Below are positions 2,182 through 41,068 of a DNA stretch of 64,000 bases, piece after piece. Both the position numbers and the translations under genes were made by a program. Source of the stretch: Erysipelotrichaceae bacterium 7770_A6 (GTDB taxonomy: Bacteria; Bacillota_I; Bacilli_A; Erysipelotrichales; Erysipelotrichaceae); NCBI GenBank assembly GCA_014610835.1, contig QQXM01000001.1, positions 1-64,000 of the forward strand, written 5' to 3'. The first letter of the stretch is position 1. Each line of letters begins with the position of its first letter. The notes beneath the pieces were generated by a model, which was not told the DNA's origin, made no database searches, and saw nothing but the letters and a program-made list of their open reading frames with translations.

Positions 2182-3882
2182 ATGAAAACAATGATTGAAT
2201 TTAAAGATTTTTCTTTTCAATACAAATCACAAAAAAAGCCAACACTGCATCATATCAATCTTGAAATCAAAGAAGGTGAAAAGGTATTGATCGTTGGTCC
2301 AAGCGGCAGTGGGAAATCTACACTTGGTCATTGCATTAATGGATTGATTCCATTTGCCTATCCTGGAAAAAAAGAAGGCAAGCTGTTCATTGAAGAAAAT
2401 GACAGTGAAAAGCTCGATATCTTTTCCTCCAGCAAGCTTGTTGGTACAGTCATGCAGGATGCAGACTCTCAATTTGTTGGACTCAATGTCGGTGAAGATA
2501 TTGCTTTCTCTTTAGAAAACAATGCCGTTGAAACAGACAAGATGCATGAAATCGTTAAAAAGGTGGCAAATCTTGTTGGTATGGGTGAGTTTCTCGAACA
2601 GTCACCACTTGAACTATCAGGAGGGCAGAAGCAGGATGTCTGTATGGCTGGTGTTATGGTTGATGAAGCACCAATCTTATTGTTTGATGAACCGCTTGCC
2701 AATCTAGATCCTGCAACCGGAAAGCTTGTGATTGAATTGATTGATGAAATCAATAAGACACAGAAGAAAACAATTATTATTATCGAACATCGATTAGAAG
2801 ATGTATTGCATCGTCCTGTGGATCGTATTGTGCTTGTTAACAATGGTGAAATTCTTGCTGACTGCAAGCCAGAAGAATTATTTGCGACAACACTGCTGGA
2901 AGATAATGGAATTCGTCTGCCATTGTATGTGCAGGCAATGAAGTATGCTGATGTTGATCTTGGTAAAGTAAAAAATCTTGCAGATGATACTGATTATGAT
3001 TTACAGGATCAAAAAGAAAAACTCGTTCACTGGTACAACACAAATAAAACAGATGTAAAGAAAATAGAATCTGCGCCATTACTGACCATCAAAGATCTAT
3101 GCTTTTCATATGATGGTGTTAAGCCAATCCTGGATCATGTCTCTCTAGATGTTCACCAGGGTGAAATGATTTCTGTTGTTGGCAAGAACGGTGCTGGTAA
3201 ATCTACACTTTGTAAATGCATCTGTGCCTTTGAAAAAGCAGATGCTGGTACATTGACATTTGAAAATACAGATATGAATGATCTGTCTGTCAAAGAAAGA
3301 GCAGATCGTATTGGATTTGTATTACAGAATCCAAACCAGATGATCTGTAATACAATGATTTTTGATGAAGTTGCAATGGGTCTTAGAAACCGTGGCATCA
3401 GTGAAGATAAAATCAAAGAAAAAGTTGAAAATACATTAAAGATCTGTGGTCTGTATCCATTTAGAAACTGGCCAATATCTGCACTCAGCTATGGTCAGAA
3501 AAAGCGTGTGACAATTGCTTCTATTCTTGCATTAGAACCAAAGATGATCATTCTTGATGAACCAACTGCTGGACAAGACTATCGCAGATATTCAGAAATC
3601 ATGGAATTCTTGAAGAGCCTGAATGAAATGGGTATCGCAATTGTTATGATCACACATGATATGCACTTGATGCTGGAATATACAACGAGAAGTGTTGTAT
3701 TAACAGGCGGTAAGAAGATTGCTGATGCTACGCCTAGTGAAGTCCTTGGCAATGAAGCACTCATTGAACGTGCAAATCTTAAAAAGACAAGTTTATCAAC
3801 ACTTGCTGCAAAAGCAGGCATTGAAGATCGTATCGCATTTATTGATACATTTATCCAACATGAAAGGGGACATCAGATATGA
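2182..3882 (+). CDS. ECF transporter ATPase with two fused ABC domains
   Basis: Energy-coupling ATPase (A and A' in one chain) of an ECF vitamin/cofactor importer. 566 residues. Domain 1 has Walker A GPSGSGKST near residue 38, signature LSGGQKQ near 145 and Walker B ILLFDEP near 165. Domain 2 has Walker A GKNGAGKST near 333, a relaxed signature LSYGQKKR near 434 and Walker B MIILDEPTAGQD near 455. A linker of about 60 residues separates them. The gene overlaps the T component by 4 nt (ATGA) and follows the S component, giving the full S-A/A'-T set. It would act at the inner face of the membrane. The substrate cannot be read from the sequence. Confidence 0.9.
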   Translation: MKTMIEFKDFSFQYKSQKKPTLHHINLEIKEGEKVLIVGPSGSGKSTLGHCINGLIPFAYPGKKEGKLFIEENDSEKLDIFSSSKLVGTVMQDADSQFVGLNVGEDIAFSLENNAVETDKMHEIVKKVANLVGMGEFLEQSPLELSGGQKQDVCMAGVMVDEAPILLFDEPLANLDPATGKLVIELIDEINKTQKKTIIIIEHRLEDVLHRPVDRIVLVNNGEILADCKPEELFATTLLEDNGIRLPLYVQAMKYADVDLGKVKNLADDTDYDLQDQKEKLVHWYNTNKTDVKKIESAPLLTIKDLCFSYDGVKPILDHVSLDVHQGEMISVVGKNGAGKSTLCKCICAFEKADAGTLTFENTDMNDLSVKERADRIGFVLQNPNQMICNTMIFDEVAMGLRNRGISEDKIKEKVENTLKICGLYPFRNWPISALSYGQKKRVTIASILALEPKMIILDEPTAGQDYRRYSEIMEFLKSLNEMGIAIVMITHDMHLMLEYTTRSVVLTGGKKIADATPSEVLGNEALIERANLKKTSLSTLAAKAGIEDRIAFIDTFIQHERGHQI

Positions 3883-4728: not shown

Positions 4729-5583
4729 ATGATTGATTATTCTAAACCAATGCTTGTATTCCAGACAGACTTTACATATGCAGAAGGTGCCGTTGCATCT
4801 ATGTATGGTGTTGTAAAATCTGTAGACCGTACTCTTGAAATTATTGATGCGACACATCAGATTCCACAGTACGATACATATTCTGCATCCTACAGATTAA
4901 TGCAGTATATGCGTTTCTGGCCAAAGGGAACAATCTTTGTATCTGTTGTAGATCCAGGTGTCGGTACATCTAGAAAAGCATGTGTTGCAAAATCAAAAGA
5001 TGGCTATTATGTAGTCACTCCAGATAATGGTGCATTAACACATATTGCACTTACAAGCGGCATTGAAGAAGTCAGAGAAATCGATGAATCCATTAACCGT
5101 TTAAAGGGCAAGGACAATGACCGTGTTGCTATCTTCGGCGGCAGAGACGTATTTGGCTATACAGCAGCTAGACTTGCTTCTGGTGTCATTACATATGAAC
5201 AGGTAGGACCAAGCTATCCAGTAGAAGATATCCAGATGTTTGATCTTCCTGAACCAGTTGTAGAAGGCAATACAGTCACAGGCTTCATGGAAATTGATGA
5301 CCCTAACTTTGGCAACCTATGGACAAACATCCATATGGATTACTTCGAAAAGCTCGATATTCATCATGGCGATACAATCCATGCATGTATTTCAAAGAAC
5401 GGTGAAGTTCTATTTGATGAAGACATCACTTACTACAAGTCTTTCGGTGACAGTGAAAAGGGCAAGGCACTTCTTTACAATAATGAAGTCAACAAAATCT
5501 CTTTCGCTATGAATCAGAACAGCTTCAAAAATAATTACCATGTAGATCATGGCGCTGACTATAAAGTTGTATTTTCAAAGTGA
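4729..5583 (+). CDS. SAM hydroxide adenosyltransferase (DUF62), copy 1
   Basis: Predicted to hydrolyse S-adenosylmethionine to adenosine and methionine, as known members of the DUF62 / SAM hydrolase-halogenase family do. 284 residues. The N-terminal FQTDF and the conserved VSVVDPGVGT and VTPDNG motifs line the SAM site. GGRDVFGYTAARLA and a C-terminal beta domain follow. A ribosome binding site (AAGAAGG) precedes ATG 4729. It lies in the same direction as the ECF genes and 9 bp before a paralogue, suggesting one operon and perhaps a substrate linked to SAM or adenosine. Confidence 0.88.
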   Translation: MIDYSKPMLVFQTDFTYAEGAVASMYGVVKSVDRTLEIIDATHQIPQYDTYSASYRLMQYMRFWPKGTIFVSVVDPGVGTSRKACVAKSKDGYYVVTPDNGALTHIALTSGIEEVREIDESINRLKGKDNDRVAIFGGRDVFGYTAARLASGVITYEQVGPSYPVEDIQMFDLPEPVVEGNTVTGFMEIDDPNFGNLWTNIHMDYFEKLDIHHGDTIHACISKNGEVLFDEDITYYKSFGDSEKGKALLYNNEVNKISFAMNQNSFKNNYHVDHGADYKVVFSK

Positions 5584-5592
5584 GACAGACAT

Positions 5593-6441
5593 ATGAATAA
5601 GACATTAGTATTTCAGTCAGATTTCGGTCTTGTTGATGGTGCTGTCAGCGCAATGGAAGGTGTTGCCTTACAGGTAGATCCTGAATTAAAGCTTCATCAT
5701 TTAACACATGACATCACACCATATAACATCTTTGAAGGCAGCTATCGTTTATTCCAGACAGTCAACTACTGGCCTGAGGGTACAGTATTTGTATCTGTTG
5801 TAGACCCAGGTGTAGGTACAAATCGTAAATCAGTTGTTGCGAAAACAAAGACAGGTCACTATATCGTTACACCAGATAACGGTACATTAACACACTTAAA
5901 CAAGTACTTAGGTATCGTTGCACTCAGAGAAATCGAAGAAAGCATCAACCGTAGAAAGAATACAGAATTATCTTATACATTCCATGGCCGTGATGTTTAT
6001 GCATATACTGGTGCAAGACTAGCAGCTGGAGTCATCACATATGAAGAAGTTGGAAAAGAACTTCCATTATCTGATATTGTTGAGCTGGATGTTGTTGAAA
6101 CAGAATATAACGCTGAAGAAAAGAGTGTGAAGGGATGTGTCGACATTCTTGATGTACGCTTTGGTTCTTTATGGACATCTATTTCTAGAGATGATTTCTA
6201 TCAGCTGAATCCTGAATTTGGCAAGCGTTATGAAGTATCTATTTTCCATGAAAATATGCTTGTATACCAGAACCAGGTTGTTTACCAGCATTCCTTTGCG
6301 GAAGTTCCTGTTGGTTCACCTTTGCTGTATATCAACTCTGTATATCGTGTTGGTATCGCAATCAACCAGGGTTCCTTCGCACGTGCCTATAACGTAGGCA
6401 CTGGTACAAACTGGAAGATTCGTATTCGTGCAATTGACTAA
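5593..6441 (+). CDS. SAM hydroxide adenosyltransferase (DUF62), copy 2
   Basis: Paralogue of the preceding gene, 282 residues, with the same order of motifs: FQSDFG at the N terminus, VSVVDPGVGT, VTPDNGT and HGRDVYAYTGARLA. The two copies differ throughout, so this is an old duplication and not a recent one. The substrate or oligomer role may have diverged, and a hetero-trimer is conceivable because characterised family members are trimeric. The stop codon is embedded in the terminator that closes this operon. Confidence 0.86.
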   Translation: MNKTLVFQSDFGLVDGAVSAMEGVALQVDPELKLHHLTHDITPYNIFEGSYRLFQTVNYWPEGTVFVSVVDPGVGTNRKSVVAKTKTGHYIVTPDNGTLTHLNKYLGIVALREIEESINRRKNTELSYTFHGRDVYAYTGARLAAGVITYEEVGKELPLSDIVELDVVETEYNAEEKSVKGCVDILDVRFGSLWTSISRDDFYQLNPEFGKRYEVSIFHENMLVYQNQVVYQHSFAEVPVGSPLLYINSVYRVGIAINQGSFARAYNVGTGTNWKIRIRAID

Positions 6442-6470
6442 GACCCGTACGCATGTACGAGTCTTTTTTT
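6440..6470 (+). terminator. Terminator of the ECF / SAM hydrolase operon
   Basis: AAGACCCGTAC pairs with GTACGAGTCTT (one C-A mismatch) across a GCAT loop and is followed by a T-run. It overlaps the stop codon of the second SAM hydrolase. Confidence 0.85.
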
Positions 6471-6475
6471 GGTTG

Positions 6476-6484
6476 TGCTATAAT
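6476..6484 (+). promoter_or_regulatory. Extended -10 promoter of the Nudix gene, leaderless type
   Basis: TGCTATAAT, with TATAAT at 6479-6484. The in-frame ATG codons at 6485 and 6491 leave no room for a Shine-Dalgarno site. A start site about 7 nt past the -10 box would fall on the ATG at 6491. No clear -35 element. Confidence 0.7.
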
Positions 6485-6490
6485 ATGCGT

Positions 6491-6910
6491 ATGTCAAAAA
6501 CGAATATCGAAAAATCATGTGGTGCTGTCATTTTTGAAAGCCGTAAGAAAGATGCCAAAGTACTGATCATTCGTCAGCTTGCCGGCCACTATTGTTTTGT
6601 CAAAGGGCATATCGAATCAAGTGAAACAGAAGCAGAAACTGCTCTTAGAGAAATCAAGGAAGAAACAGGACTTGTAGTAAAACTGGATACAAAGTTTTCA
6701 CAGAAGACTCATTATATGCTTTCCAATGGCAATGAAAAAGAAAATACTTATTTTATTGCGTATGTGAGTGGCGGCAAAGAACATATGGAAAAGGATGAAT
6801 TGAGTCATATGTACTGGATGAAGCCAATCGAAGCATTGGGCTGTATTACATATGACAATGATGCTGAAGTATTGAAACAGGCAATGCAGTACAGGAAGGC
6901 ACCATGGTAA
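6491..6910 (+). CDS. Nudix hydrolase, bis(5'-nucleosyl)-tetraphosphatase-like
   Basis: Small cytoplasmic Nudix enzyme of 139 residues. The Nudix box GHIESSETEAETALREIKEE has the consensus spacing G-x5-E-x7-R-E-x2-E-E and lies near residues 38-60. The early motif SCGAVIF and a VKGHIE-type entry resemble Ap4A hydrolases, so dinucleoside polyphosphates are the likeliest substrate. The start was placed at 6491 because the -10 box ends at 6484. ATG 6485 is an alternative, and a longer frame upstream would run into the preceding terminator. The stop overlaps the next start (ATGGTAA), so it heads an operon ending with rluB. Confidence 0.82.
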   Translation: MSKTNIEKSCGAVIFESRKKDAKVLIIRQLAGHYCFVKGHIESSETEAETALREIKEETGLVVKLDTKFSQKTHYMLSNGNEKENTYFIAYVSGGKEHMEKDELSHMYWMKPIEALGCITYDNDAEVLKQAMQYRKAPW

Positions 6911-28729: not shown

Positions 28730-28948
28730 TGCAAATCAATGACAAAGACAAGTAACGCTGTATAGGATGTCTAGAGAGAAGCTGTAAGGTGAAAAGCTTT
28801 CAATTATACATGTCGTGAAGCTACTTTTGAGAGTATGAAAACATACCGTTATCCACGTTACGGATGAAATTAAGGTGCACATATTACATATGTGAATCAG
28901 GATGGTACCGCGTTAATGACGTTCCTGTATATACAGGAACGTTTTATT
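28730..28948 (+). promoter_or_regulatory. T-box riboswitch of alaS
   Basis: The T-box core AGGATGGTACCGCG lies at 28899-28912. The terminator ACGTTCCTG-TATATA-CAGGAACGT followed by TTTTATTATT ends just before the ribosome binding site. GCT followed by A at 28820-28822, in GTGAAGCTAC, is the likely alanine specifier codon, matching the gene controlled. Confidence 0.92.
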
Positions 28949-36484: not shown

Positions 36485-36490
36485 ATGCAT

Positions 36491-36970
36491 ATGAAAAGAC
36501 AGTTTTTGATTATCGTCCTTCTTCTTGCAGGAATTTTAAGTGTTGATCTTAAACCAGTTTCCTTATCTGATCCTGAAAATACACGAATTCATGTTTCTAT
36601 CAAAGGTGCAGTTGAAAAAGAAGAAACAATCAGTTTAAAGCAATATGCAACGGTACAGGAAGCAATTGACCAGATTCGGCTTAAAGAGAATGCTGATATT
36701 TCTTCTCTTAACCCAAACATGGTATTAAAAGATGCCGACGTATTATCGATACCATATCAGACAGATGAAAAAGAACTCCCACGCGTTTCTATCAATCAGG
36801 CAACACGTGAAGAACTGCAGCAGTTAGATGGTATTGGTCCATCAACTGCAGATGCAATTATTCAATATCGTGAGGAACATGGTCTGTATCAGACAATTGA
36901 AGATATCATGAAAGTCAAAGGGATTGGAAATGCAAAGTTTGAGAAAATCAAAGAGAAGATTACGTTATGA
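36491..36970 (+). CDS. comEA: Competence DNA receptor ComEA
   Basis: Binds incoming double-stranded DNA at the outer face of the membrane during transformation. 159 residues. One N-terminal membrane anchor (QFLIIVLLLAGIL), an SLBB-type beta domain (HVSIKGAVEKEETISL), then a tandem helix-hairpin-helix domain: SINQATREELQQLDGIGPS and IMKVKGIGNAKFEKIKE. ATG 36485 is an alternative start 6 nt upstream; neither has a good ribosome binding site. It overlaps comEC by 4 nt (ATGA). Confidence 0.92.
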   Translation: MKRQFLIIVLLLAGILSVDLKPVSLSDPENTRIHVSIKGAVEKEETISLKQYATVQEAIDQIRLKENADISSLNPNMVLKDADVLSIPYQTDEKELPRVSINQATREELQQLDGIGPSTADAIIQYREEHGLYQTIEDIMKVKGIGNAKFEKIKEKITL

Positions 36971-37269
36971 CTTCGTGTAAGAATCATTGTGTATTTTTAT
37001 CTCTTCTTATGTTTCTTTTTGCTTTGTGTTATCAAAAGATATTTGTTTTATCTCTTTGCTGCTGTATTGTTCTTTGGATACTTCGTACAAAAGATCATAG
37101 CTTTTTATTTGTATGTATTATTTTAGCGATATTTTCTATACCACGAGGATATACAAGATATCCTGACATGAAGGAAGCAAAAGCAATCCAGGTTTCTTCA
37201 TCGTATGCAGTTTTAAAAAGTGGAAATCAAAAGGTTATTGTCTATACAAAAGAACCTTTATTTTTTGAT
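36967..37269 (+). CDS. comEC: ComEC, upstream exon (split by the IStron)
   Basis: First 101 codons of the competence DNA channel ComEC, with two hydrophobic segments (HCVFLSLLMFLFALCYQ and IFVLSLCCCIVLWIL) and the start of the DUF4131 OB-like domain. On genomic DNA the frame ends at a TAG two codons into the inserted element. The last codons are TTT TTT GAT, so the insertion lies exactly after TTGAT. The rest of the gene continues at 39473. If the element is spliced or excised, the joined gene encodes about 632 residues. Confidence 0.85.
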
Positions 37270-37660
37270 TAGACGTTTGGTGCACACTCGTGACTTCAGT
37301 CGTGAGTAAACCAAACAATATAGTTAGCGTATAGAGAAATTTGTACGTAGTGGTATACTACAATACCCAACAAAGAGACTGAATTGCTGGAATAATTCGT
37401 AAAGGCAGTTGAGCTACAACGCAGGTTTGAAATACAGCCAAGCGTGAATGCGGCGAAAGCAGAAAAAATCAACTGTATGGTGCATGGTCAAACCCTAAAC
37501 GCTTGCAAATCGAAAATCAGCAGCTAAGCTCCGAATAGGAGAAAGTTCAACGACTATCCCTCGTGAGGGGAGTACATCCAAGCGGATGGAAGTGGTCTCG
37601 CCTGAAGCAGTGGAGATAACATCAAAGCTGTCATGGATAAGATATAGTCTGTGCCTGTAT
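37270..37660 (+). ncRNA. Group I intron catalytic core
   Basis: Conserved group I elements in the right order: Q-like AATCAGCAGC (37515-37524), R-like GTTCAACGACTA (37545-37556) and S-like AAGATATAGTC (37639-37649). P7 forms between GACTAT (37552-37557) and ATAGTC (37644-37649). Between R and S are small hairpins CCCTC-GT-GAGGG and CATCC-AAGC-GGATG, at the place of the P7.1/P7.2 extensions of group IA introns. A long-range CAGTTGA/TCAACTG stem, closing just before the core, could be P2. P1 would pair exon TTGAT with 37321-37327. The 3' splice site is 1.8 kb away at the right end of the element. Confidence 0.85.
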
Positions 37661-37721
37661 GAAAGTTCAGGATGTCCCAAAAGGACTGCCATAGAAGCAG
37701 CGAGCTATGGTGAACAACAAC

Positions 37722-37745
37722 TACTCAAAGTTCTTTTGAGTTTTT
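37722..37745 (+). terminator. Terminator between intron core and tnpA
   Basis: ACTCAAAG-TT-CTTTTGAGT (one bulge) followed by TTTTT. It would stop part of the comEC read-through transcript before tnpA and before the distant 3' splice site. Confidence 0.6.
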
Positions 37746-37806
37746 ACATATGTTATTTTAAAATATTTATATTTGTTTACAAATCAAAGGATTTTGCTTA
37801 TACCTA

Positions 37807-37815
37807 TGTTATAAT
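37807..37815 (+). promoter_or_regulatory. Extended -10 promoter of tnpA
   Basis: TGTTATAAT, followed by AGAGG and ATG at 37834. It gives the transposase genes a promoter separate from that of comEC. Confidence 0.6.
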
Positions 37816-37833
37816 ATTTATAGAGAGGTTTCT

Positions 37834-38238
37834 ATGAATATTGTACATGGCAGAGGTTACGTTTACGGATTGCAATACCACATTGTGTTTTGTGTGAAAT
37901 ACAGAAAACCAATACTTACTGGCGAAGCTGAAACTCGATTGAGAGACATATTCTCAATGATTGCTGAAGATAACTGCTTCACAATCGAGGAGATGAATAT
38001 GGACAAGGATCATGTTCACCTGCTTATAAGCTGCTCCCCTCAAAACTATATACCTTCAATGATGAAGGCCTTGAAAGGTGTATCAGCACATAAGCTGTTC
38101 AAACAAATGCCAGAATTGAAAAAGGAATTGTATAAAGGTCATTTGTGGAATCCATCTTATTTCGTGGCTACTGTGTCAGAAAATACAGAAACCCAGATAA
38201 GAGAATACATTCGAGCACAGAAGGTGGTAAATGTATGA
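37834..38238 (+). CDS. tnpA: IS200/IS605 transposase TnpA (Y1 HUH type)
   Basis: Single-strand transposase that cuts and joins the hairpin ends. 134 residues, normal size. The HUH motif is DHVHLLI near residues 59-65 and the catalytic Tyr is in REYIRAQ near residue 126. Early YHIVFCVKYRKP is typical. No frameshift or stop, so it looks intact. The stop overlaps the tnpB start (ATGA). Confidence 0.94.
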   Translation: MNIVHGRGYVYGLQYHIVFCVKYRKPILTGEAETRLRDIFSMIAEDNCFTIEEMNMDKDHVHLLISCSPQNYIPSMMKALKGVSAHKLFKQMPELKKELYKGHLWNPSYFVATVSENTETQIREYIRAQKVVNV

Positions 38239-39347
38239 CTATCGCAAAAGCCTATAAAGTCAGACTTTACCCAACAAAAACACAGCAAGAACTGATGATC
38301 AAAACATTTGGATGTACACGGTTTGTGTACAACAAAGCATTACACATCTGCCAGGAAACATATCGTACATCAAAAAGACCTGTGTTTTATGGTGAACTTA
38401 GCAGAATGCTCACGTTTTGGAAAACTACGACAGAGTTAAGCTTTTTGAAAGCGGTAGATAAGTTTGCTCTGCAGAATAGTTTGAGAGACCTTTGCCAAGG
38501 CTTCACAAACATGAAACATGGAGCAGGTTATCCAAAGTATAAATCCAAACACGATCATCACGATTCTTACAAAACACAGTTTACGAATAACAACATTGCG
38601 GTGGATAACACATATATCAAATTGCCGAAATTAGGGCACATTAGATATAGAGATAAGAAAACACCACAAGGTAAAATTCGTAATGTCACTATATCTAGAA
38701 CGCCTTCTGGCAAGTATTATGCCAGCGTTTGTGTTGAGACAGAGGATGTTAGGGAATTGCCGATGACAGGTAATCAAATCGGTATTGATCTTGGAATCAA
38801 AGGATTCTGTGCTATGAGCAATCACGAGAAAGTAGAAAATCCTCGCTTTCTGAATAAGACACTGCAACAGATACAGAAACTCCAAAGAGAGCTATCTCGA
38901 AAATCAAAAGGTAGTTCCAATTGGGAGAAGAACCGTATCAGACTTGCACGTTTGTATGAAAAAGCAACAAATCAGAAAAGGGATTTTCTTGAGAAACTGT
39001 CCACAAGAATAGTGAGTGAGAATGATGTCATCTGTATTGAAGATTTACATGTGTCAGGTATGGTGAAAAATTATAATCTTGCACAATCCATTCTCAGTGC
39101 ATCGTGGTATGAATTTGTGGCTAAGCTAATATACAAAGCTAAGTGGTACGGTAAGACGGTAATCAAAGTCAATCGTTTCTACCCAAGCAGTCAGCTTTGT
39201 TCTGCATGCGGTCATAAAAATCCGTTGGTTAAAGATCTATCAATTAGAGAGTGGATATGTCCAGTATGTGGAATATCTCACGATAGAGATATCAACGCAA
39301 GTACAAATATTTTAAACGAAGGCTTAAGGCAACTTGAAGTTGTCTAA
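38235..39347 (+). CDS. tnpB: TnpB RNA-guided nuclease
   Basis: RNA-guided DNA nuclease of IS605-type elements, ancestor group of Cas12. 370 residues. N-terminal KAYKVRLYPTKTQQELM (helix-turn-helix/OB part). The RuvC residues are all present: Asp in IGIDLGIKGF near 185, Glu in VICIEDLHVSGM near 270 and Asp in SHDRDINAS near 355. The zinc ribbon has CSACGH and CPVCG. Start at 38235 overlaps the tnpA stop; codons further upstream are tnpA in another frame. It probably cleaves targets flanked by TTGAT, the insertion motif. Confidence 0.93.
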   Translation: MTIAKAYKVRLYPTKTQQELMIKTFGCTRFVYNKALHICQETYRTSKRPVFYGELSRMLTFWKTTTELSFLKAVDKFALQNSLRDLCQGFTNMKHGAGYPKYKSKHDHHDSYKTQFTNNNIAVDNTYIKLPKLGHIRYRDKKTPQGKIRNVTISRTPSGKYYASVCVETEDVRELPMTGNQIGIDLGIKGFCAMSNHEKVENPRFLNKTLQQIQKLQRELSRKSKGSSNWEKNRIRLARLYEKATNQKRDFLEKLSTRIVSENDVICIEDLHVSGMVKNYNLAQSILSASWYEFVAKLIYKAKWYGKTVIKVNRFYPSSQLCSACGHKNPLVKDLSIREWICPVCGISHDRDINASTNILNEGLRQLEVV

Positions 39348-39472
39348 CATATGTAAGAACCGCAGGAACTGCGGGGATAGCCTGCTAATATATCTGAGAA
39401 CGGGGAATGAACAATCATTCTAGGGATACAGAGTTCGCAGGAACCTCGTGACTTCAGTCATGAGTAGTTCAG
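39348..39472 (+). ncRNA. Predicted TnpB guide RNA (omega RNA) scaffold and right end
   Basis: The 125 nt after tnpB are non-coding and rich in hairpins: ACCGCAG-GAA-CTGCGG, further short stems, then the right-end hairpin CTCGTGAC-TTCA-GTCATGAG at about 39446-39465. In IS605 elements the RNA from this region binds TnpB, and the sequence just outside the element is the guide. Here that guide would be comEC sequence from 39473. The same stretch must carry the 3' splice site of the intron. Confidence 0.75.
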
Positions 39473-41068
39473 GCATCATATACAGTGACTCCTGAATTTA
39501 AAAGGGTTGATGAATCCTTTCATTCATATGGATTTTCGTATTCACACTGGCTGAACAGTCAGGGAATCTATTATGCAGTAGATGAATCTTTCATTACGTT
39601 AAAGAAAGAAAACATTTCGATACGAAGATGGATTCAGAAAAAAATCAATACCATAGAAGATGTATCGATACAGTCACTATTAAATAAAAGCCTGTTAAAT
39701 ATTAAAGATACGAAAGAAAACTCATGGATGAAAGAAGCAGGGTTTTCTTATATTTCGATACTGTTTCTGTTTCATGTAATCTGTAAATATTTCATGAGTG
39801 AAAAAAAGAAAGATGTCGTGCTTTCTGTAATTACGATTCTTCTATTAATTGTGTATCGCTTTCCTATGATTCTTGTTGAAAATCTTTTATTCCGCGTATC
39901 TCGCTATTTTCCACTGTCCAGACAGAAGTCTGCTTCACTTATCACAATGTTCATTATGTTTTGTTATCCTTCTGAGATTACTTCTGCTTCTTTTCTGATT
40001 CCTTCTCTCTACCATTATTCATTTTTATTTAATGAGCACAAAAAAGGAATCCTGTTTCTATTGATTTCAATCTTGCAAAGTATCTTATTTCAGACAATCA
40101 ATCCAATGCGTTCTTTCCTGTATCCCTTGAACATGTTTCTGCATGGTTTCTTCTTTCTGTTTTCTCTTGTGCGTTTCTTTACACCGGTTGATTTTGTGTC
40201 TTTGATTGCTTCAGCATTACAGTCATTCAATACATTGATGAATGCATTTTCTCTAAAAGGTTCCATTGCTGGTGCTGGATGTATTTTATATATCCTCGTT
40301 GTCAGCATGTTTCATCATAAAGTCAGAGCTGCAATTGTATTGTTATATATATTTCAGATGACTGGATTATTTCATCCATGCATGGAAATGACAATGATCA
40401 ATATAGGACAGGGAGATGCTATCTTAATTCGTGCACCATTGAACAGTGACAATATCTTGATTGATACTGGTAAACCATCAGCATACAACGCTTTAAAAAC
40501 ATATCTGGATGCAAAAAGTATTTATGTCATTAATACATTGATCATTACACATAATGATAATGATCATAGTGGAAACAAGACGAACATTCAAAAAGACTTT
40601 GCAGTAAAGCAATGCATTGAAACACATCAAACAACAATACAGTCTTCTATTTTCACACTCCTGGATATCAATGAAATACAAAGTGAAGATGAGAATGGCA
40701 GCTCCATTGTCAATGTCGTTAACTTTAATGGAAAACAGGTGTGTCTAATGGGCGTTGCATCAGACAAAACAGAAGAAGAAATCATCCATAAATATCCAAC
40801 GTTATCTTGCGATATTTTAAAACTTGGTCATCATGGTTCATCAACATCATCCTCTGATCAGTTTTTAGATGTTGTACGTCCAGAAACTGCCCTGATTTCA
40901 TCAGGTGCCTACCGTATCTATCATCATCCAAGTGAAGAAACAATACAGAAATTATTGAAACGACATATCCCATATTTCGATACAAAAACAAGTGGGGATA
41001 TCACAATTCTATGTTTTGGCAAGATTCGTGTTTTTATTACATCGAGATTTGAAATAGGTCTGATATAA
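39473..41068 (+). CDS. comEC: ComEC, downstream exon (rest of the competence channel)
   Basis: Continues comEC in the same frame as 36967-37269, with no stop from the element edge: GCA TCA TAT ACA GTG ACT. Contains the rest of the OB-like domain (HSYGFSYSHWLNSQGIYY), the many-spanning ComEC/Rec2 channel domain (residues about 170-380 of the joined protein) and the C-terminal metallo-beta-lactamase-like nuclease domain with MINIGQGDAILI, ITHNDNDHSGN and LKLGHHGSSTSS. A GTG at 39485 could in principle start a truncated protein but has no ribosome binding site. Confidence 0.88.
   Translation, partial: ASYTVTPEFKRVDESFHSYGFSYSHWLNSQGIYYAVDESFITLKKENISIRRWIQKKINTIEDVSIQSLLNKSLLNIKDTKENSWMKEAGFSYISILFLFHVICKYFMSEKKKDVVLSVITILLLIVYRFPMILVENLLFRVSRYFPLSRQKSASLITMFIMFCYPSEITSASFLIPSLYHYSFLFNEHKKGILFLLISILQSILFQTINPMRSFLYPLNMFLHGFFFLFSLVRFFTPVDFVSLIASALQSFNTLMNAFSLKGSIAGAGCILYILVVSMFHHKVRAAIVLLYIFQMTGLFHPCMEMTMINIGQGDAILIRAPLNSDNILIDTGKPSAYNALKTYLDAKSIYVINTLIITHNDNDHSGNKTNIQKDFAVKQCIETHQTTIQSSIFTLLDINEIQSEDENGSSIVNVVNFNGKQVCLMGVASDKTEEEIIHKYPTLSCDILKLGHHGSSTSSSDQFLDVVRPETALISSGAYRIYHHPSEETIQKLLKRHIPYFDTKTSGDITILCFGKIRVFITSRFEIGLI

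What the first reader, a model, noticed from the sequence alone, without database searches (positions are those of the whole stretch)
36967..41068. An IStron (group I intron + IS605) splits comEC, and the reading frame is preserved
Seen: comEC is interrupted by about 2.2 kb that begins with group I intron elements (Q, R, S motifs and a perfect 6-bp P7), carries intact tnpA and tnpB, and starts exactly after TTGAT. Joining 37269 to 39473 (or 39479) gives one open frame of about 632 codons. Known: CdISt1 in C. difficile has this composition and target and splices out of mRNA. Inference: comEC may be functional through RNA splicing, so the element is a near-silent passenger in a competence gene. 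I know of IStrons mainly from clostridia; an example in comEC of what appears to be an Erysipelotrichia genome would be new to me.
Basis: partly seen in the sequence, partly recalled or inferred. Interest (0 to 1): 0.95.

Follow-up and report, generated by a model that had tools for sequence, protein, structure and literature searches.

The report
Self-splicing transposon sitting inside comEC
A complete IStron (a jumping gene that carries its own self-splicing RNA intron) sits inside the DNA-uptake gene comEC of an uncultured, probably rumen, Erysipelotrichaceae bacterium; all the parts needed to splice itself back out of the message are there, which makes it a well-preserved new member of a known kind in a host class the earlier survey did not report.

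Summary
Confirmed. Bases 37270-39472 (2203 bp) are a complete group A IStron: a group I intron core (Rfam RF00028, 51.2 bits, gathering 50) followed by intact tnpA and tnpB of the ISDra2 type, inserted after TTGAT and ending TTCAG. Removing it joins comEC into one 632-codon frame. At the junction (D|A) that protein aligns without a gap to 24 uninterrupted comEC proteins from relatives, so the 3' boundary is 39473, not 39479. The ribozyme is under structural selection: over 10 related introns, 96.1% of pair cells hold and 27 of 49 pairs show changes on both sides (0 of 500 shuffles). P1 pairs UUGAU|UA with UAGUUAG, with the U.G pair at the splice site, and the guide sequence covaries with target type across elements. 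The preserved frame alone proves little, because this IS family inserts without target duplication. Splicing is inferred, not shown; a related intron in the same family sits in parC, which is expected to be essential. New here: IStrons in Erysipelotrichaceae, and a second one in the same genus splitting another competence gene (comGD). Verdict: new member of a known kind; whether competence genes are preferred is open.

The parts
36485..36970 (+). comEA, directly upstream; overlaps the comEC start (ATGA)
   Evidence: ORF; TIGR00426 ComEA HhH region, 94.5 bits
36967..37269 (+). comEC 5' exon, codons 1-101, ends ...LFFD
   Evidence: aligns to the N-termini of uninterrupted ComEC relatives up to the conserved D
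37265..37269 (+). target pentanucleotide TTGAT = TnpA target / predicted TnpB TAM / 5' exon half of P1
   Evidence: sequence; group A IStron target; ISDra2 target and TAM
37270..39472 (+). the IStron, 2203 bp, group A (IS200/IS605 type), TAG...TTCAG
37286..37307 (+). left-end subterminal hairpin, 9 bp (ACTCGTGAC-TTCA-GTCGTGAGT), presumed TnpA site; also the distal part of extended P1
   Evidence: fold, z -3.45; near-identical in CdISt1-type copies and in intron-less IS200-like elements L036/L037
37321..37327 (+). internal guide sequence UAGUUAG, pairs with UUGAU|UA (37265-37271), U37269.G at the 5' splice site
   Evidence: minimum-energy fold; pairing table over 7 insertions
37323..37671 (+). 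group I intron core (P2-P9)
   Evidence: RF00028 51.2 bits; 27 of 49 pairs with double changes over 10 introns
37552..37557 (+). P7 5' strand (R element), pairs with 37644-37649
37834..38238 (+). tnpA, Y1 HUH transposase, 134 aa (HVH at residue 60, Tyr125)
   Evidence: PF01797 E 2e-41; ISDra2 TnpA 2xm3 E 1e-40; residues
38235..39347 (+). tnpB, RNA-guided nuclease, 370 aa; RuvC motifs GIDLG, CIEDL, HDRD and both CxxC present
   Evidence: NF038281 486.7 bits; ISDra2 TnpB 8bf8 E 1e-91; residues
39350..39472 (+). right end: predicted omega/reRNA scaffold and 3' part of the intron (5' end of scaffold not determined)
   Evidence: aligns to right ends of CdISt1-type copies; sub-threshold Ref70 sRNA match 28.9 bits vs gathering 115; fold z -2.86
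39445..39464 (+). right-end subterminal hairpin (CTCGTGACTTCAGTCATGAG)
   Evidence: sequence and fold
39473..39492 (+). 3' exon start; predicted TnpB guide GCATCATATACAGTGACTCC, matching the empty site after TTGAT
   Evidence: inference from the ISDra2 reRNA layout; sequence
39473..41068 (+). comEC 3' exon, 531 codons, with the MBL-fold domain
   Evidence: TIGR00361 ComEC_Rec2 104.8 bits alone and 119.8 bits joined, both below its cut-off of 190; PF00753; relatives

Best explanation
A complete group A IStron has inserted after TTGAT in codon phase 0 of comEC. Shown by sequence: boundaries, intact ribozyme core, P1 pairing with the exon, intact TnpA and TnpB, conserved right end, undecayed exons. 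Inferred: (1) the comEA-comEC transcript runs through the element; (2) translation of unspliced RNA stops at the TAG at the junction, which keeps ribosomes off the ribozyme; (3) the group I intron excises itself, joining U37269 to G39473, and restores a 632-aa ComEC; (4) at DNA level TnpA moves the element as single strands between TTGAT sites, and TnpB, guided by a right-end RNA whose guide is the comEC sequence GCATCATATACAGTGACTCC, cuts the empty TTGAT-comEC site so that the element is copied back. Splicing separates that guide from its scaffold, so the two RNA fates compete.
For: Rfam hit. Covariation: 96.1% of cells paired, 27 pairs with double changes against a shuffled mean of 15.4, 0 of 500 shuffles; slid controls 37-45% paired. 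P1 across the splice site, minimum-energy fold z -3.45; guide covaries with target: TTGAT elements carry GUUAG/GUCAG, ATTAT/TTTAT elements carry GUAA(G). Gap-free ComEC junction against 24 relatives. Catalytic motifs intact. comGA, comGB and comGC intact in the same genome. Related introns in the same family in parC and in a HAD hydrolase, where joined exons restore conserved motifs.
Against: No RNA data. The RF00028 score only just exceeds its gathering threshold. A recent insertion that does not splice would leave equally intact exons. P10 and the 3' splice site are not supported by any pairing I tested. TnpB cutting and the competition between splicing and guide RNA are carried over from other elements.
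Confidence: 0.8

Rival explanations
1. The element is an IStron, but comEC is in practice knocked out: splicing is absent or too weak, the insertion is young, and it acts as other MGEs that break competence genes to avoid being removed by transformation.
For: MGE insertions that break competence genes are documented (comYC, comFA, comM, comK, comEC; PMC4774983), and comEC is interrupted by transposable elements in all Piscirickettsia salmonis genomes (PMC12955456). Intact exons are also expected for a young insertion.
Against: Every core helix of the ribozyme is maintained, most with compensatory changes; P1 matches this exon; insertion is phase 0 with a stop at the junction, the configuration over-represented among IStrons (PMC4227781).
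Confidence: 0.15
2. Regulated splicing: the element is a switch on competence, because splicing and guide-RNA formation compete for the same transcript and may respond to conditions or GTP level.
For: Intron 3' end and predicted TnpB guide scaffold share 39350-39472. A second IStron in the genus splits another competence gene, comGD.
Against: No data on regulation; two cases only, noticed after the fact; other insertions in the family lie in parC, a HAD hydrolase and non-coding DNA.
Confidence: 0.07
3. Assembly chimera: the element is joined to comEC by misassembly of a repeat in the MAG.
For: The genome is a 233-contig assembly.
Against: Single copy in the genome, so no repeat to misjoin; both junctions fall exactly on the expected target and terminus, and P1 matches this exon.
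Confidence: 0.02

Closest known systems
CdISt1 (Clostridioides difficile), group A IStron; copies used here on a Clostridioides phage (L049) and a C. difficile plasmid (L050)
   Same: TTGAT target, TCAG end, same kind of intron, same left hairpin, TnpB 52-53% identical, conserved right end
   Different: the two copies compared lack tnpA, whereas this one has intact tnpA and tnpB; different host class; inserted in comEC
EfISt1-like element (Enterococcus faecium; L048)
   Same: group A IStron with both ORFs; intron about 70% identical over 409 bp
   Different: ATTAT target with a matching change in the guide sequence; TnpA only 34% and TnpB 43% identical
ISDra2 / IS8301 (Deinococcus radiodurans)
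   Same: TTGAT target and TAM; closest solved natural TnpA and TnpB
   Different: carries no group I intron
Transposons and prophages that disrupt competence genes (comEC, comYC, comFA, comM, comK)
   Same: mobile element inside a DNA-uptake gene
   Different: those abolish the gene; this one carries the means to be spliced out of the message

Membership tests
Group A IStron (CdISt1-like) | insertion after TTGAT/ATTAT/TTTAT, terminus TCAG, no target duplication | tested here: met
   TTGAT at 37265-37269, TTCAG at 39468-39472; junction gap-free against 24 relatives
Group A IStron (CdISt1-like) | group I intron at the 5' end | tested here: met
   RF00028 51.2 bits, above gathering 50; covariation
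Group A IStron (CdISt1-like) | IA2 subgroup | tested here: inconclusive
   P7.1 and P7.2 present and alignable to CdISt1/EfISt1-type introns, but no subgroup-specific model was run
Group A IStron (CdISt1-like) | IS200/IS605 ORFs (Y1 TnpA and TnpB) | tested here: met
Group A IStron (CdISt1-like) | subterminal palindromes at both ends | tested here: met
   37286-37307 and 39445-39464
[quoted passage not shown]
Group A IStron (CdISt1-like) | splices in vivo | not testable with these tools
   no RNA data held
RNA-guided TnpB nuclease (IS200/IS605) | RuvC catalytic motifs and zinc finger | tested here: met
   GIDLG, CIEDL, HDRD and two CxxC; NF038281 above cut-off
RNA-guided TnpB nuclease (IS200/IS605) | right-end guide RNA and TAM-dependent cutting | not testable with these tools
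   conserved right end seen; activity needs experiment
ComEC/Rec2 | NCBIfam TIGR00361 above curated cut-off | tested here: not met
   119.8 bits against 190.05 for the joined protein. The protein is a divergent relative; I call it comEC by homology to full-length ORFs of relatives, MBL motifs and its place directly after comEA, not by this model

The most novel reading that the evidence does not exclude
IStrons in this lineage preferentially occupy DNA-uptake genes (comEC here, comGD in a congener), giving a reversible, RNA-level control of natural transformation instead of the outright knock-out used by other mobile elements.
Probability: 0.07. Interest if true: 0.75.

Novelty: new member of a known kind. 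Interest (0 to 1): 0.42.

Why it matters
It extends IStrons to Erysipelotrichaceae with a complete element (intact tnpA and tnpB, which the 2014 survey found uncommon in group A). It also places a self-splicing element in the DNA-import channel gene, in a literature where mobile elements in competence genes are read as knock-outs. If it splices, an interrupted competence gene in a genome need not mean a non-transformable strain.

Tried and rejected
3' boundary 39479: rejected, it deletes two residues against relatives and does not follow TCAG. Frame preservation as evidence of splicing: discarded as automatic for this IS family. Direct empty-site DNA: none; the nearest ComEC found is 43% identical in protein, so the empty site was tested at protein level only. 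TnpA relatives in viral contigs: none. Promoters and terminators inside the element: no excess over shuffles; a weak ACTCAAA/TTTTGAGT hairpin followed by T near 37727-37745 was seen by eye and not counted as evidence. Excess of competence genes: insertions found in the family are comEC (window), comGD and one non-coding copy (G044), parC and a HAD hydrolase (G559), and one unassigned (G528), too few and noticed afterwards.

Full report
WHAT IS THERE. comEA (36485-36970) is followed by comEC, whose reading frame stops at TAG 37270-37272 after 101 codons and resumes downstream. Between the two parts lies an element that begins directly after TTGAT (37265-37269) and ends with TTCAG at 39472. Rfam finds one group I intron in the window, 37323-37671, 51.2 bits against a gathering score of 50. 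It is followed by tnpA (37834-38238) and tnpB (38235-39347), both intact. TnpA matches PF01797 (E 2e-41) and ISDra2 TnpA (2xm3, E 1e-40); TnpB matches NF038281 above its cut-off and ISDra2 TnpB (8bf8, E 1e-91). The HVH motif, the C-terminal tyrosine, the three RuvC acidic motifs and both CxxC pairs are present.

BOUNDARIES. Group A IStrons insert after TTGAT, ATTAT or TTTAT and end TCAG (PMC4227781). This gives 37270-39472, 2203 bp. Joining 37269 to 39473 gives one 632-codon frame. Relatives of the genome carry uninterrupted comEC frames, about 630-680 codons long. Aligned to 24 of them, the joined protein runs through the junction (...FFD|ASYTV...) with no gap there, at an aspartate present in 23 of the 24. 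No nucleotide-level empty site was found, since the nearest ComEC is only 43% identical.

IS THE RIBOZYME REAL AND MAINTAINED? I aligned ten related introns: this one, two Clostridioides copies, two enterococcal ones, three from the same family and two from the same class. I then counted a hand-written structure: P2, P3, P4, P5, P6, P6a, P7, P7.1, P7.2, P9. 96.1% of cells pair (shuffled mean 79.5%), 27 of 49 pairs have changes on both sides (shuffled mean 15.4), the covariation score is 0.506 against 0.186, with 0 of 500 shuffles reaching any of these three; slid structures pair in 37-45% of cells. The shuffle control does not remove relatedness and the structure was written from the window sequence, so the slid control favours it somewhat, but the size of the effect and the number of double changes leave little doubt. 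P7 never varies and so says nothing either way.

P1 AND THE TARGET. The minimum-energy fold of 37255-37345 pairs UUGAU|UA with UAGUUAG (37321-37327), placing U37269.G at the splice site (z -3.45). Across seven insertions the guide tracks the target: TTGAT elements have GUUAG or GUCAG, ATTAT/TTTAT elements have GUAA(G). So the same five bases serve as transposase target, predicted TnpB TAM (TTGAT in ISDra2, PMC8612924) and 5' splice-site pairing.

WHAT THE FRAME DOES AND DOES NOT SHOW. More telling is that the insertion is in codon phase 0, so that the element's first three bases (TAG) form a stop at the junction. The 2014 survey reports that more than half of intragenic IStrons are in frame and proposes that such stops keep ribosomes out of the intron (PMC4227781). 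One case cannot test that.

RELATED INSERTIONS. In 273 genomes of the family, a conserved P7 motif was found in four. In a congener (G044) an IStron with tnpB but no recognisable tnpA splits comGD after ATTAT: the 5' part is on one contig (L053) and the 3' part on another (L052), and joined they read through in frame as a pseudopilin. A second copy in that genome follows TTTAT in non-coding DNA; because the two contigs share the repeat, the join is inferred. In G559 a 486-bp ORF-less intron splits a HAD hydrolase after TTTTGAT, restoring DFD|DTLYF, and another lies in parC, where the exons restore NSY..LFKNTDLQ. parC is expected to be essential (general knowledge), so that intron very probably splices. 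This is indirect support for the clade, not proof for this copy. G528 has a further, unassigned one next to an assembly gap. G044 also has intron-less IS200-like elements with a near-identical left end after TTGAT.

MECHANISM. Most likely the element is excised from comEC mRNA by the group I ribozyme and mobilised at DNA level by TnpA, with TnpB and a right-end guide RNA acting on the empty site as proposed for ISDra2. The predicted guide is GCATCATATACAGTGACTCC. Because the guide is 3' exon sequence and its scaffold is intron sequence, splicing and guide-RNA formation should exclude each other on one transcript. I recall published work on such a conflict in IStrons (Science 2024), but it is not in the held library and was not checked. 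The genome keeps comGA, comGB and comGC, consistent with, but not proving, a working uptake system.

COMPETENCE GENES. Mobile elements that break competence genes are well documented and read as defence against removal by transformation (PMC4774983); comEC is interrupted in P. salmonis (PMC12955456). Two of about six insertions in this family lie in competence genes, which is more than their share of a genome would suggest, but the sample is tiny and the pattern was noticed afterwards. I treat it as a lead.

MEMBERSHIP AND NOVELTY. All testable features of a group A IStron are met, except that the IA2 subgroup was not tested with a dedicated model and splicing could not be tested. The joined protein scores below the NCBIfam ComEC cut-off (119.8 vs 190), as a divergent family member; its name rests on homology, MBL motifs and position. 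IStrons in Erysipelotrichia are not named in the 2014 survey (0 mentions of 'Erysipelo'); later subscription papers could not be searched. The rumen origin of the host is inferred from its nearest named relatives (rumen MAGs). Verdict: new member of a known kind.

Noticed in passing
L053 (3' end) and L052 (about 4780-6640, minus strand), genome G044, same genus: A second IStron (tnpB, no recognisable tnpA) splits comGD after ATTAT with the frame preserved; its two halves are on different contigs. A further copy follows TTTAT.
   Followed up: partly
L065, about 504-989: A 486-bp ORF-less intron of the same clade splits a Cof/HAD hydrolase inside its catalytic motif (DFD|DTLYF) after TTTTGAT.
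   Followed up: partly
L066 (minus strand, about 3150-3850): A group I intron of the same clade interrupts parC, expected to be essential, in genome G559.
   Followed up: partly
L036 and L037, genome G044: IS200-like elements without intron after TTGAT, with a left end nearly identical to that of the IStron: possible relatives of the IS partner.
   Followed up: no
window 39354-39469: Sub-threshold match to Rfam Ref70 (Enterococcus sRNA 70), suggesting that this listed sRNA may itself be a TnpB right-end RNA.
   Followed up: no
G000:C96:31481-32584 (L068): A second, distant TnpB (41% identical) in the same genome, with no second copy of the intron detected in that genome.
   Followed up: partly
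window 28730-28929: T-box leader (RF00230, 104.9 bits).
   Followed up: no
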